From contig CALWLJ010000015.1 in the NCBI GenBank assembly GCA_944381495.1, positions 1 through 64,000 on the forward strand: DNA of 64,000 nucleotides, given 5' to 3'. Under the pieces are notes generated by a model. It saw only the letters and a list, made by a program, of their open reading frames with translations, was not told the DNA's origin and did not search any database. Positions 3,836-22,133 of the stretch are shown one piece after another (position 1 is the stretch's first letter; the number at the start of each line of letters is the position of its first letter). Origin of the DNA: an uncultured Mediterraneibacter sp. (GTDB taxonomy: Bacteria; Bacillota; Clostridia; Lachnospirales; Lachnospiraceae). The position numbers and the translations under genes are program-made.

Positions 3836-5344
3836 ATGAAAAGAGCAAGCGGAATCTTATTACCGGTATTTTCCCTGCCGTCTAAATACGGGATTGGATG
3901 TTTCTCAAAAGAAGCGTACAAATTTGTCGATATGCTGAAGAGAGCGGGACAGAGCTACTGGCAGATCCTGCCGCTTGGACCGACCGGATACGGAGATTCC
4001 CCGTACCAGTCTTTCTCCACGTTTGCAGGAAATCCATATTATATTGATCTGAAGACACTGATCAAGGAAGGTCTTCTGACGAAAAAGGAGTGCAAATCCT
4101 TTGATTTCGGTGATAAGGATGACGAGGTGGATTACGAGAAGATCTACCGCTCCCGTTTTAAAGCACTGAAGCTGGCCTATGACCGCTTCGAGAAAGATGC
4201 TGACTATGAGCAGTTTGTAAGCGATAATGCTTACTGGCTTGAGGATTATGCCCTTTACATGGCGATCAAGGATAGAAATAACGGTGTGAGCTGGAAGGAG
4301 TGGGAGGCGCCGCTCCGCGACAGAGAAGAGACAGCACTGGCAAGAGCCAGAGAAGAGCTGGCAGAGGAGATTGATTTCTATCGTTTCCAGCAGTATGAGT
4401 TCGATAAACAGTGGAAGAAGCTTCATGCATATGCAAATGAGCAGGGCGTGAAGATCATAGGCGACATCCCGATCTATGTGGCATTTGACAGTGCAGATAC
4501 ATGGGCGGCGCCTGAGCTGTTCCAGTTTGATGAGGAGAACAATCCGACCGGAGTGGCAGGATGCCCGCCGGATGCGTTCTCAGCTACAGGACAGCTGTGG
4601 GGAAATCCTCTTTACAGATGGGAATATCATAAAAAGACAGGCTATGCATGGTGGATCAAGAGAATCGCTTACTGCCTGAAGCTCTACGATGTGGTTCGGA
4701 TCGATCATTTCCGCGGATTCGATGAGTACTATGCGATTCCTTACGGGGATGAGACTGCTGTCAATGGTAAATGGATGCCGGGACCGGGAATGGATCTGTT
4801 CCATGCTATTGAAAAAGCTCTTGGAAGGCCGGAGATCATCGCGGAGGATCTGGGATTCCTGACACCCAGTGTGCTGAAACTGTTAAAAGACAGCGGATTC
4901 CCGGGAATGAAAGTGCTCCAGTTTGCCTTTGACGCCCGTGAGTCTTCCAATTACCTGCCCCATACTTACCCCACAAACTGTGTAGTTTACACAGGAACTC
5001 ATGACAATGACACTACAAGAGGCTGGTATCATGAGGTGGGAAAAGGTGCAAGAGACTTTGCAAAGGAATATATGTGCAAGCCGCGGCTGGACGAAGACAG
5101 TCTGGCAGATGACTTTATCGCAATGGCAATGAGCAGCGTGGCGGATCTGTGTGTGATCCCCATGCAGGATTATCTCAACCTGGGCAGCGAGGCAAGGATC
5201 AACATCCCGTCAACCCTTGGCGGAAACTGGGTGTGGAGGATGAAGAAAAAACAGTTCTCCGGTGAAGTGGCGGATGAGATCGCGAGAGTGACGAAGCTGT
5301 ACGGAAGAATGCCGGAGAAGGAAGATGGCTGTTTAGGTCAATAG
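3836..5344 (+). CDS. malQ: 4-alpha-glucanotransferase (amylomaltase)
   Basis: This GH77 enzyme transfers glucan segments between maltodextrins and makes chains long enough for GlgP to attack. The 502-residue length is normal. The catalytic residues are visible: nucleophile Asp290 in VVRIDHFRGF, acid/base Glu337 in IIAEDLG, and Asp390 in GTHDNDT. The N-terminal MKRASGILLPVFSLPSKYGI is typical of the family. A GAAGGAG site precedes the ATG. The gene follows glgP and is probably cotranscribed with it. Its TAG stop lies inside the left end (CAATAGC) of a long palindromic repeat, so that element abuts or was inserted at the 3' end of the gene. Confidence 0.95.
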   Translation: MKRASGILLPVFSLPSKYGIGCFSKEAYKFVDMLKRAGQSYWQILPLGPTGYGDSPYQSFSTFAGNPYYIDLKTLIKEGLLTKKECKSFDFGDKDDEVDYEKIYRSRFKALKLAYDRFEKDADYEQFVSDNAYWLEDYALYMAIKDRNNGVSWKEWEAPLRDREETALARAREELAEEIDFYRFQQYEFDKQWKKLHAYANEQGVKIIGDIPIYVAFDSADTWAAPELFQFDEENNPTGVAGCPPDAFSATGQLWGNPLYRWEYHKKTGYAWWIKRIAYCLKLYDVVRIDHFRGFDEYYAIPYGDETAVNGKWMPGPGMDLFHAIEKALGRPEIIAEDLGFLTPSVLKLLKDSGFPGMKVLQFAFDARESSNYLPHTYPTNCVVYTGTHDNDTTRGWYHEVGKGARDFAKEYMCKPRLDEDSLADDFIAMAMSSVADLCVIPMQDYLNLGSEARINIPSTLGGNWVWRMKKKQFSGEVADEIARVTKLYGRMPEKEDGCLGQ

Positions 5345-5666
5345 CGTTTTCTCGGAAAGCATCCGGAAGCGGGGCGGAAACATTGGCTGAGCGTATTCCG
5401 GATGAAGCGGTGTGTGTGGCATGTTCCGTTCCGGAATCTGGGAAGAATCTAAAGGAAGGAAAAACTGTTTAAAAGCAAAACGGCACGAGGGGCAACTCGC
5501 ATTCGCTCAGACAATCCCCTCGTGCCGTTTAACAACAGTTTATCCTTCCTTAAGATCTTCCAGCAGATTCCTCCAAAGTCACATGCCCCACACACCGCCT
5601 CAGCCGGAAAGGCTCATCCCGCCGTCCGCTCCGCTTCCTGCGCTGTTCAGAAGGGAAATGCTATTG
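5339..5666. repeat. Giant palindromic element, family 1, copy A
   Basis: The spacer after malQ folds almost completely on itself. A left arm of about 154 nt (5339-5492) pairs with a right arm of about 151 nt (5516-5666) around a 23-nt loop, CAACTCGC ATTCG CTCAGACAAT (5493-5515). The best-paired blocks are 5484-5492 with 5516-5524, the GCGGTGTGTG/CACACACCGC block, and GGAAGCGG/CCGCTTCC near the base. The ends are inverted repeats (CAATAGC and GCTATTG). The same loop recurs in the element at 20056-20385, whose arms are otherwise different. Reading frames across it are by-products of the palindrome. Transcribed, it would be a very long hairpin and could terminate malQ or protect its 3' end. Confidence 0.85.
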
Positions 5667-5690
5667 TCTAAACAAACCAAAATATAAACT

Positions 5691-5771
5691 GGCGCGGCTT
5701 GGAAGTCTTACAATATGGTAAGTTCTCCAAGCCGCGCCTCTGGTTTCCCGGGTGTATAGCCACTAACTTCC
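5691..5771. repeat. Hairpin plus element-end fragment of family 1
   Basis: Two things lie here. GGCGCGGCTTGGA (5691-5703) pairs perfectly over 13 bp with 5726-5738. Next, 5753-5770 (TGTATAGCCACTAACTTC) is identical to the reverse complement of the right end of the 20-kb palindrome (20368-20385), and similarity extends some 20 bp on either side. It is therefore a detached or partial family 1 end in the opposite orientation, lying just outside the stop of the DUF3784-like gene. Confidence 0.7.
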
Positions 5772-5825
5772 CCTACTTTGAACAATCAGAATACGTTTTA
5801 GAGATTATGCTCCTGTTTTCGGGTC

Positions 5826-6131
5826 TTATTTCCTTTTCCTGCAAACGGTGTTGGCAAGAATTACTGCAACCACGGCGGCAATAAAAATGATAGTTGCGAA
5901 AAGCCCAGCCATGTCCGCAGACTCTTCTCCCATAATGCCGTCCACAACAAATATGGCAGCGCAGAATCCGCTCAGACAGCTCATCAGACGGCATACTTTT
6001 CTGTAATCATACTTCTGTTTCTGCTTTTCGCTCATGGTATTATATCCTGCAAACAAAAAGCTTCCTTTTTCCTTCCAGAACGCGACAGCCATAATGACAA
6101 ATATGATTGCAATGCCATATTCTATCCTCAT
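5826..6131 (-). CDS. DUF3784-like small membrane protein
   Basis: This 101-residue protein has an N-terminal hydrophobic segment (about residues 5-19), a short cytoplasmic loop with GYNTMSEKQKQKYDY, and two further hydrophobic stretches (about 50-65 and 74-94). The GYNTMS...YD motif after the first membrane helix is the signature I associate with DUF3784 proteins of Firmicutes; their function is unknown. The gene follows the DUF2007-like gene by 34 bp on the same strand, so the two probably form an operon. A GAGG-containing site precedes the ATG. Confidence 0.7.
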   Translation of the reverse strand: MRIEYGIAIIFVIMAVAFWKEKGSFLFAGYNTMSEKQKQKYDYRKVCRLMSCLSGFCAAIFVVDGIMGEESADMAGLFATIIFIAAVVAVILANTVCRKRK

Positions 6132-14837: not shown

Positions 14838-15128
14838 GTGATTTGCCCGGTCTGCAGAATCTGACACTGCGGCTGGCATTATATTGAAAAAGCTGAGATC
14901 GTGTAAAGTAGAGACCCATTTTCTATTAGAGAGAGAAAATCACCGGCTGAAAGTTTTCTTTAGTTCAGATGGCAATCGAATTTCCCACGTTAGCTGCACT
15001 TCTGAATTCAGCAGTAGGGAGTGCCGTAGATTGTACGTTACACAAACCGAGTGCCTGCAGGATTCCTGCGGGAAACAGGGTGGTACCGCGAGCTTATGAC
15101 CTCGTCCCTTTTAGGGACGGGGTTTTTT
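14838..15128 (+). ncRNA. T-box leader (Phe) of pheST
   Basis: This riboswitch senses uncharged tRNA-Phe. The 14-nt T-box AGGGTGGTACCGCG is at 15077-15090, and an intrinsic terminator follows at 15099-15128 (CTCGTCCC pairs with GGGACGGGG, then six T). Upstream are the AGTA motif after GTGTAA, the AGAGAG motif near 14931, and a candidate specifier in CGAATTTCCCAC. The four bases TTTC (14981-14984) contain both Phe codons, which fits pheS downstream. Uncharged tRNA would favour the antiterminator. Unusually, about 300 bp of GC-rich DNA separates the terminator from pheS. Confidence 0.93.
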
Positions 15129-20050: not shown

Positions 20051-20055
20051 CTGAC

Positions 20056-20385
20056 TGTATAGTTCACTAACTTCAGTGATTGAATATCCGAAAACAGGGG
20101 GATTTCCAAAACGTATTCTGCGGGGATGGAGATGGCATCCGGGTTCCGCTCCAGGGATATAAGTTAAACTAAGGGTTCCGTGGATAGACTAAATGCAAGG
20201 ACTGGCGGTGAACAACTCGCCTTCGGCTCAGACAATTTCACCGCCAGCCCTAACGTCTCTCCCCGGAACCCAAGTTTAACTAATACCCTTTCGAAGTCAC
20301 CCGTCCACCATCTCCATCCCCGCAGAAAGGTTTTCCAAATCAGCTGTTTTCTGGTCTGTTCAGGAAGGAAGTTAGTGGCTATACA
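20056..20385. repeat. Giant palindromic element, family 1, copy B
   Basis: About 330 bp that folds on itself: left arm 20056-20212, loop 20213-20236 (CAACTCGC CTTCGG CTCAGACAAT) and right arm 20237-20385. The best stem is 18 bp without mismatch (20118-20135 with 20308-20325); others are GTTAAACT..GGGTTCCG with its partner near 20264-20280 and TGGCGGTGA/TCACCGCCA around the loop. The ends are an inverted repeat (TGTATAG..CACTAACTTC at 20056; GAAGTTAGTGGCTATACA at 20368-20385). The loop is nearly identical to copy A while the arms are not. Frames crossing it are palindrome artefacts. Confidence 0.88.
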
Positions 20386-20505
20386 GCCCGGAAACAAATG
20401 AACTAAACAGCCATAATACTTATCCGCTGTTCTGGAACTTTGGGATTATCGTGGTGCCGGATATAGCAAAGGTAAAAATGACACAGGACCAGGAGGAAAC
20501 AACAG

Positions 20506-21674: not shown

Positions 21675-21789
21675 TGTTACTGCTCAGTCAAGCCGCGGTA
21701 TCCAGCCATGTCGCACGTTGCTGTTCAGTCATACCTCATTCGACCATAACAGATGTTACTGCTCATCCATGTCTCAGTATCCAGCTATG
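21675..21789 (+). repeat. Imperfect 36-bp direct repeat
   Basis: TGTTACTGCTCA begins each of two units (21675-21710 and 21754-21789), and both end in GTATCCAGC(C/T)ATG. The units are 79 bp apart. The second unit runs into the left end of the family 2 palindrome. Confidence 0.6.
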
Positions 21790-21922
21790 AAGGAGCCGTG
21801 CTGTCACGAAGGCCCGTAGTGGTGCGCCGGCACTTGGGACGCGTCCTTGGCATCCCTATGTGTCCGCTGCACTCCGAGCGAAAGCGTGGCCGCCGGGATA
21901 ACACGGCTCCTTCATGGCGGAC
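21776..21922 (+). repeat. Palindromic element, family 2, copy C
   Basis: GCTATGAAGGAGCCGTG (21784-21800) pairs 16/17 with 21902-21918. The roughly 100-bp interior contains smaller GC-rich hairpins and the core GCGAAAGCGTGGCCGCCGGG (21878-21897). The core and the outer flanks (CAGTATCC on the left, ATGGCGGAC on the right) recur at 28369-28451, where the stem sequence is different but still paired. The rest of the 536-bp gap between the GNAT and rpn genes shows a small hairpin near 21925-21945 and no gene. Confidence 0.75.
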
Positions 21923-22133
21923 GATCGAGAAAATTCCATTTCTCGAAAGTTCTTGCTTTCCCTTCAAAACGGTGTTAATATGTTCCTACATCAAAGAGCC
22001 GGATACTATTTTCTGAAAATCCAAACATCCGGACATAGATGCTGTCAAGGCATCATATCTCATAGTTCAGGGCTGATTCAGCCGGAGATACCATTTTTGA
22101 TGAAAAATTAATATCAGCAGGAGGATAATACTT

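What the first reader, a model, noticed from the sequence alone, without database searches (positions are those of the whole stretch)
5339..5666. Giant palindrome with an invariant loop and non-conserved arms (copy A)
The sequence shows about 150-bp arms that pair over their whole length, and a 23-nt loop nearly identical to that of the element at 20 kb. The arms have almost no sequence in common with the other copy, yet each is self-complementary. Either structure is selected (a very long RNA or DNA hairpin) or arms are regenerated by copying one strand onto the other. The left end overlaps the malQ stop codon. This matches no repeat class I can name.
Basis: seen in the sequence. Interest (0 to 1): 0.72.

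Follow-up and report, generated by a model that had tools for sequence, protein, structure and literature searches.

The report
Mobile giant hairpins with conserved tip
The giant palindrome after malQ is one copy of a widespread non-coding repeat whose tip is nearly fixed while its long arms change but stay paired; it looks like a mobile hairpin element that we found described in no library or paper we searched.

Summary
The palindrome is real: z -16 against shuffles. It belongs to a family: the loop pattern hits 12 places in this genome; a covariance model built without this genome recovers both window copies and matches 17 of 398 genomes of the phylum. A scan of named genomes finds it from Firmicutes to Proteobacteria and Bacteroidetes.

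Close pairs of hairpins share one polarity: 18 of 19 or 13 of 14, by two arm filters. Inherited arms change by stepwise compensation, not arm-to-arm copying. Here the units lie at gene 3' ends. Content at both window sites differs from a sister species. In one relative, similar cores carry locus-specific but self-complementary outer arms.

Best reading: a mobile element working, like REPINs, through a folded single strand, with an unknown enzyme; Y1 transposases do not track it. Observation confirmed; the copying alternative stays open for outer arms only. No Rfam match at gathering score; eight literature searches found no description.

The parts
5327..5825 (+). Whole composite element between malQ and the converging ORF 5826-6131 (right limit approximate)
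   Evidence: Left end GGCTGTTTAG at 5327; alignments with several congeners end at 5325; sister species G350 shares both outer ends but has another interior
5330..5674 (+). Big hairpin, A type, 345 bp; strand given is the one that reads AACTC..TCARACA, the more stable fold is on the other strand
5493..5515 (+). Conserved tip of copy A, CAACTCGCATTCGCTCAGACAAT
5691..5738 (.). Small GC-rich hairpin h (GGCGCGGC..GCCGCGCC)
   Evidence: other copies in the genome, most beside A/B hairpins, one without
5746..5771 (-). Remnant of the inner end of an inverted B hairpin
   Evidence: 92% over 26 bp
5787..5822 (-). Remnant of the outer arm of the inverted B hairpin, shared with G350 (right limit by eye)
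20055..20412 (+). Second copy in the window (B type), ends CTGTATAG .. CTAAACAGCC, directly after a gene stop
   Evidence: only a short residue in G350
20213..20236 (+). Conserved tip of copy B
21771..21935 (.). Module C palindrome, a third hairpin type with ends of the form CTGTTCA..TGAACAG in other copies; also nested inside A/B elements elsewhere
   Evidence: arms 21784-21814/21888-21918; nearly 40 matches in G350, others in this genome

Best explanation
This is a non-coding mobile element that works through a folded single strand. A unit is a long hairpin, often two head to head with 180-411 bp between their tips. The tip is what a trans-acting factor recognises, so it stays fixed; the arms only have to pair, so their sequence drifts by compensatory changes. 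Units spread to many sites, tolerated mainly at gene 3' ends, and interiors are gained, lost or exchanged inside existing ends, giving nested and mosaic palindromes. SHOWN: hairpin, family, fixed polarity of most pairs, stepwise compensation, strand-specific stability, no orientation to genes, 3'-end position in this genome, different content at the same sites in a sister species. INFERRED: that it is mobile by an enzyme in trans, that the tip is the recognition site, and that the acting molecule is ssDNA or RNA. The enzyme is unknown.
For: Many copies in each of several genomes. A sister species with 99% identical malQ differs in content at both window sites. In 118 named-genome loci 70 of 124 tip-pattern hits have paired arms against 6 of 590 random positions, with unrelated arms in different genomes. 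A model without this genome finds both window copies at E 4e-8 and 5e-7. Pairs within 800 bp: 18 of 19 or 13 of 14 in one polarity. Compensation: 42 of 130 pairs with double changes against 8-14 when slid; double changes rise with divergence. Strand bias: isolated mismatches, written for the better-folding strand, are G.T 282 against A.C 167 and G.A 273 against C.T 78; lower energy in 134 of 152 hairpins, also without the tip and in inner and outer arms apart. Orientation to tandem genes: 18 sense, 25 antisense, p 0.36.
Against: No mobilising gene found: no telling recurrent family among the largest groups of neighbours shown, Y1 and DUF559 do not track copy number. No target-site duplication seen by eye. 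The polymorphic sites could be deletions in G350; the 45-bp residue there is not a significant hairpin (z -0.7 and -0.9). RNA and ssDNA cannot be told apart. The tip was part of the search pattern, so its conservation in those sets is partly by construction. Pair polarity has two exceptions: L168 (reverse order) and L189 (same strand). Copies within a genome share ancestry, so own and congener counts are not independent; the named-genome set (53 of 64) is the better test. The mismatch bias is weaker counted per hairpin (more A.C on the loop strand in 70, fewer in 27; single sets p 0.03 to 0.23) and absent in some outer stretches.
Confidence: 0.6

Rival explanations
1. Cis-acting RNA: a long 3'-UTR hairpin that ends or protects transcripts of the neighbouring genes (bidirectional terminator or 3'-end stabiliser).
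For: 28 own-genome elements: 14 between convergent, 13 tandem, 1 divergent pair; median 0 bp to a flanking 3' end. Strand-specific fold with G.U and G.A mismatches suits RNA.
Against: Better-folding strand is sense 18, antisense 25 in tandem settings. No T run after the element at either window site, by eye. High copy number with swapped interiors.
Confidence: 0.15
2. It is a REPIN/BIME moved by a RAYT (Y1 HUH) transposase.
For: Inverted pairs of palindromes in extragenic space, non-autonomous, strand-specific hairpin; one RAYT gene in G403 lies within 600 bp of hairpins on both sides.
Against: Y1_Tnp in 16 of 20 high-copy and 15 of 20 low-copy genomes; none in G282 (26 loop hits, one contig), G211, G297, G098. 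Eight of the low-copy genomes are congeners chosen only for lack of B-type DNA. 0 of 30 fetched Y1 loci have the tip motif. The G403 RAYT has GTAG-type repeats of its own around it (by eye).
Confidence: 0.08
3. Arms are made by copying one strand onto the other at insertion (inverted duplication of about 22 bp of target, or template switching).
For: G282: 13 of 13 scored copies pair 18-22 of 22 outside the core, cross-copy pairing mean 10.8, maximum 15 of 22 (156 comparisons); left arms 49% identical between copies while 13 other cores are 83-94% identical to that of L331. Only one other short-loop hairpin of this size in 67.5 kb of G282, so waiting targets are rare. 6 further hairpins were dropped because the edge pattern missed them.
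Against: Inherited B-type arms show stepwise compensation. In G191 the outer arms look like ordinary intrinsic terminator stems followed by T runs (by eye), which favours insertion into existing hairpins.
Confidence: 0.2
4. Ordinary MITE: decayed ends of a DDE insertion sequence with long inverted repeats.
For: Small, non-coding, multi-copy, inverted ends GGCTGTTTAG/CTAAACAGCC.
Against: Ends differ between genomes (GCAAACA.. in G282) while the tip recurs across phyla, the reverse of a MITE; strand-specific folding is not expected of dsDNA transposition; no autonomous copy seen.
Confidence: 0.07

Closest known systems
REP / REPIN / BIME (Bertels and Rainey 2011, PMC3116915; abstract and outline seen)
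   Same: Non-autonomous extragenic palindromes, functional unit a doublet of inverted copies, predicted to fold in ssDNA or mRNA
   Different: Units are about 130-350 nt here; the conserved part is the tip, not the foot; arms vary freely; no RAYT link found
GTAG- and CGTC-tagged REPs (Di Nocera 2013, PMC3733652; abstract, section 6 and a term search seen)
   Same: Spread over phyla, opposite-orientation dimers, mostly downstream of coding regions; CGTC repeats also lack a known transposase
   Different: 20-40 bp with an unpaired tag at one end; the strings ACTCG, TCAGACA and TCAAACA do not occur in the held text, which has no figures
Insertion sequences that target REP palindromes (PMC1525189, search listing only)
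   Same: Mobile DNA associated with existing palindromes
   Different: Encode a transposase (recalled); here the unit is itself a hairpin without a gene
Bacterial MITEs (PMC10969869, search listing only)
   Same: Small, non-coding, inverted ends, many copies
   Different: Conservation pattern is reversed: ends vary between genomes, tip recurs

Membership tests
REPIN/BIME | Inverted doublet of a conserved palindrome as unit | tested here: met
   18 of 19 or 13 of 14 close pairs in one inverted polarity; single copies are common too
REPIN/BIME | GTAG/CGTC-like tag at the hairpin foot | tested here: inconclusive
   Feet differ between genomes; no such tag noticed by eye; no systematic test
REPIN/BIME | Linked RAYT (Y1 HUH) gene in the genome | tested here: not met
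   No Y1 match in 4 of 20 high-copy genomes including one-contig G282; 0 of 30 fetched Y1 loci carry the tip motif
MITE | Terminal inverted repeats shared with an autonomous element | tested here: inconclusive
   Inverted ends present; no telling recurrent gene in 118 loci, 14 largest groups shown
MITE | Target-site duplication | tested here: inconclusive
   None seen by eye; no clean empty site
Described RNA family (Rfam 15) | Match at gathering score | tested here: not met
   Whole window: T-box only, elsewhere; 8 relative loci: rRNA only; element at E<=10: 11 matches, all below gathering
Intrinsic terminator | GC stem followed by a T run | tested here: not met
   No T run after either window element, by eye
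k-turn-like RNA motif | Tandem sheared G.A beside a short stem plus a bulge | not testable with these tools
   Better-folding strand reads UGUYUGA-[GC..GC]-GAGUU; k-turn rule recalled; three-dimensional fold not testable here

The most novel reading that the evidence does not exclude
A bacterial class of mobile element, spanning phyla, whose identity lies in a fixed, strand-specific hairpin tip while its arms are disposable: it moves as a folded single strand (ssDNA or RNA), installs itself in or as a hairpin, and takes or makes complementary arms from each target, by an enzyme not yet known.
Probability: 0.3. Interest if true: 0.88.

Novelty: new variant of a known kind. Interest (0 to 1): 0.7.

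Why it matters
If right, bacterial genomes of many phyla carry a mobile element that sequence searches miss, because only about 20 bases at the tip are conserved. Its strand bias and compensatory arms make a natural test bed for how selection acts on long nucleic-acid hairpins. It raises a direct question: which protein reads the tip, and does it act on ssDNA or RNA. It would also explain mosaic palindromes at gene ends in these bacteria.

Tried and rejected
RAYT/Y1 transposase as partner: profile over 40 genomes and proximity over 30 fetched loci, rejected as a general partner. DUF559: 5 of 20 high-copy and 5 of 20 low-copy genomes, no link. GIY-YIG and DUF559 queries against ORFs of all loci held then: nothing. 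Recurrent neighbour genes in 118 named-genome loci: the 14 largest groups shown are common housekeeping families and spurious ORFs across the hairpins. Phage origin: only 10 of 120 viral-contig stretches have palindromic hits, random positions 0 of 360. Rfam: nothing at gathering score. Plasmid search with a Variovorax pair: 13 records, one holding most of it, the rest short side matches. Arm-to-arm copying for inherited arms: not borne out. A base hairpin waiting at the copy B site in G350: not significant. G.T against A.C cells in the B alignment alone, 132 against 155, is weak. Covariation on alignment A1 is circular because rows were chosen for paired arms. Literature: searches gave no description of this motif or element; one search listed one paper with one of the strings (PMC8918986, on soil remediation, not opened). 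The library lacks most subscription papers and preprints, so it may be in print elsewhere.

One search shows that one of its 26 rows (L234, Lachnoclostridium sp. An76) lies on a contig of the length of G300:C1, a congener, so I now say without this genome. The draft also said that no close pair lies on one strand; one search shows one (L189). One search adds a random control for the named-genome loci.

Full report
OBSERVATION. The stretch 5339-5666 folds to -179.4 kcal/mol; 100 shuffles average -96.3, sd 5.1, and none reaches it. The unit begins at GGCTGTTTAG (5327) and malQ ends inside it, at 5344.

FAMILY IN THIS GENOME. The loop pattern ACTCGCN{0,12}CTCARACA has 12 matches in the 3.19-Mb genome, 1 with the reversed control. 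All 12 were folded and inspected: most are long palindromes, L004 has lost its right arm. DNA search finds two arm subfamilies: B (window 20 kb) with seven other copies at 86-90% identity and more at 77-79%, and A with three relatives at 89%, 92% (part only) and 74%. Some are joined as A - h - inverted B, as at C5:16141-16897, with internally deleted versions elsewhere. A third palindrome, module C, has its own ends and also sits inside such composites.

DISTRIBUTION. In 299 genomes of the family, 76 have at least one match, but single matches also occur with the control pattern (at most 3 in one genome); 18 of 299, this one included, have five or more, up to 46 (my count from its table). The tip was the search pattern, so its letters are conserved there by construction; what is not by construction is that 70 of 124 hits have paired arms (78 of 124 by a gapped score), against 6 of 590 and 5 of 354 random positions in the same loci. 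A covariance model from 26 hairpins, none from this genome and one from its genus (L234), finds exactly the two window copies, E 4e-8 and 5e-7. It matches 17 of 398 genomes of the phylum, own genome included with 12 copies; at most 13 candidates per genome were scored, so high counts are lower bounds, and the stricter filters lose weak matches. In viral contigs 10 of 120 stretches have palindromic hits.

ARCHITECTURE. The tip is AACTC-G[C]..[G]C-TCARACA, with a short inner stem that itself varies. Copies found through their arms rather than the tip also carry it, with variants such as ACTCACTTCGTTCAGACA and ACTCGGCTTCGCCTCAGACA. In 94 hairpins CTAAA lies on the 5' side in 31 and the 3' side in 7, and TAACG on the 3' side in 17 and the 5' side in 2, against 10 and 5 of 236 random 70-mers, so a second conserved internal loop exists in part of the family. 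Two hairpins within 800 bp are in the order + then - in 18 of 19 cases, 180-411 bp apart; with a gapped arm filter in 13 of 14. The exceptions are L168 (reverse order) and L189 (same strand, 209 bp apart). That polarity over phyla marks the pair as a unit.

HOW THE ARMS CHANGE. On 32 B-type copies from seven genomes, 86.1% of cells of a structure taken from copy B are paired and 42 of 130 pairs show double changes; slid controls give 35-50% and 8-14. Among copies in the 93-97% identity bin (13 comparisons), 5 of 222 changed pairs are double changes (2%); this rises to 7%, 14% and 26% with divergence. Concerted copying would give double changes from the start, so these arms evolve by stepwise compensation. 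The copies share ancestry, so counts are not independent events.

ARMS THAT ARE NOT INHERITED. In G282 the shared core is about 134 bp, and 13 other cores are 83-94% identical to that of L331, but just outside it each of 13 scored copies has its own arm pairing 18-22 of 22, while arms of different copies pair 10.8 on average, 15 at most (156 comparisons); left arms are 49% identical. Six further hairpins were dropped because the edge pattern missed them; one of these (L332) lacks the right arm, the others look paired by eye. In G646, G406 and G191 even the inner arms differ between copies (about 50% identity) while pairing with themselves 15-17 of 20 against 9-10 across copies (7, 4 and 9 hairpins); the two G735 copies share their inner arms. 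Either units enter existing hairpins, as terminator-like outer stems in G191 suggest (by eye), or insertion duplicates about 22 bp in inverted form, as the rarity of free hairpins in G282 suggests (1 in 67.5 kb). This is open.

STRAND. Reading the loop strand, isolated mismatches in the arms are A.C 282 against G.T 167, and C.T 273 against G.A 78, over five sets. Hence the complement carries G.T and G.A, the mismatches that RNA and ssDNA tolerate best (established knowledge). Per hairpin the first bias is weaker: more A.C in 70, fewer in 27, single sets p 0.03 to 0.23, and it fades or turns in some outer stretches; in the B alignment alone the counts are 155 against 132. Energies are clearer: the complement folds lower in 53 of 64 (named genomes), 34 of 38, 16 of 19, 13 of 13 (own) and 18 of 18 (congeners) with RNA parameters, and similarly with DNA parameters. 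The bias holds for the arms alone without the tip, and for inner and outer parts apart. On that strand the tip reads TGTYTGA-[GC..GC]-GAGTT, which could form tandem G.A pairs beside the inner stem; the likeness to a k-turn is recalled, not tested.

POSITION. Of 28 elements in this genome 14 lie between convergent genes, 13 in tandem and 1 in a divergent pair; all neighbouring ORF pairs of these loci, the same ones included, are 19 convergent, 40 tandem, 8 divergent. The median distance is 0 bp to a flanking 3' end (n=41) and 128 bp to a 5' end (n=15) (genes by a simple ORF rule). In other genomes the better-folding strand is sense 18 times and antisense 25 times in tandem settings, p 0.36; hairpins inside ORFs (20 of 68 in the named-genome set), at locus edges or in pairs were left out of this count. 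So a strand-specific fold goes with no orientation to genes, which suits an element acting for itself rather than a regulatory RNA of its neighbour.

MOVEMENT. G350, whose malQ is 99% identical, keeps both outer ends after malQ but has a different interior with module C at the centre. At the copy B site G350 has about 45 bp in place of about 360 bp; that residue is not a significant hairpin, so loss in G350 is as possible as gain here. Among more distant congeners shown, several have only an ordinary terminator after malQ and some have palindromes of their own (read by eye, output cut).

MECHANISM AND PARTNER. The best reading is a non-autonomous element recognised at the tip of one folded strand. 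Y1 transposases are present in 16 of 20 high-copy and 15 of 20 low-copy genomes and not found in G282, G211, G297 and G098; eight of the low-copy genomes were chosen only for lack of B-type DNA. None of 30 fetched Y1 loci carries the tip. One RAYT gene in G403 has hairpins on both sides, but also GTAG-type repeats of its own. No telling recurrent neighbour gene was found. The enzyme is therefore unknown.

VERDICT. A real, widespread repeat family without a match in Rfam at gathering score and without a description in the papers searched. It works like REPINs in general plan but fails the RAYT criterion, and its conservation is inverted: fixed tip, free arms.

Noticed in passing
window 14886-15112 (+): T-box leader, 117.8 bits.
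   Followed up: no
window 21771-21935: Module C palindrome: a separate family with nearly 40 matches in sister species G350 and several in this genome, with its own ends (CTGTTCA..TGAACAG).
   Followed up: partly
window 5327-5344: The element supplies the last five codons and the stop of malQ; several other copies also overlap the ends of flanking ORFs.
   Followed up: partly
L202:1610-2130 and L284 (Variovorax): A symmetrical paired element bounded by CTTTCTTTTGCTTCGCCAAAAGAAAG-like hairpins; a 45-base side repeat near it recurs 37-40 or more times in each of seven Paraburkholderia replicons.
   Followed up: partly
L555:2300-3650 (G403): RAYT gene (NF047646) with GTAGGGGCGACC..GTCGCCCG repeats and two of these hairpins around it.
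   Followed up: partly
L425, L431, L475, L482, L524: Five viral-contig stretches share the same hairpin with an AAAATTTTT arm, perhaps one related prophage region.
   Followed up: no
Genome-contig loci L161, L175, L202, L204, L213, L238: Long ORFs run across or near the hairpins and cluster together between genomes; probably spurious proteins made by translating the repeat.
   Followed up: no
L234: Lachnoclostridium sp. An76 contig of 939,034 bases, the length of G300:C1, which suggests that the unnamed genus of the window includes this organism.
   Followed up: partly
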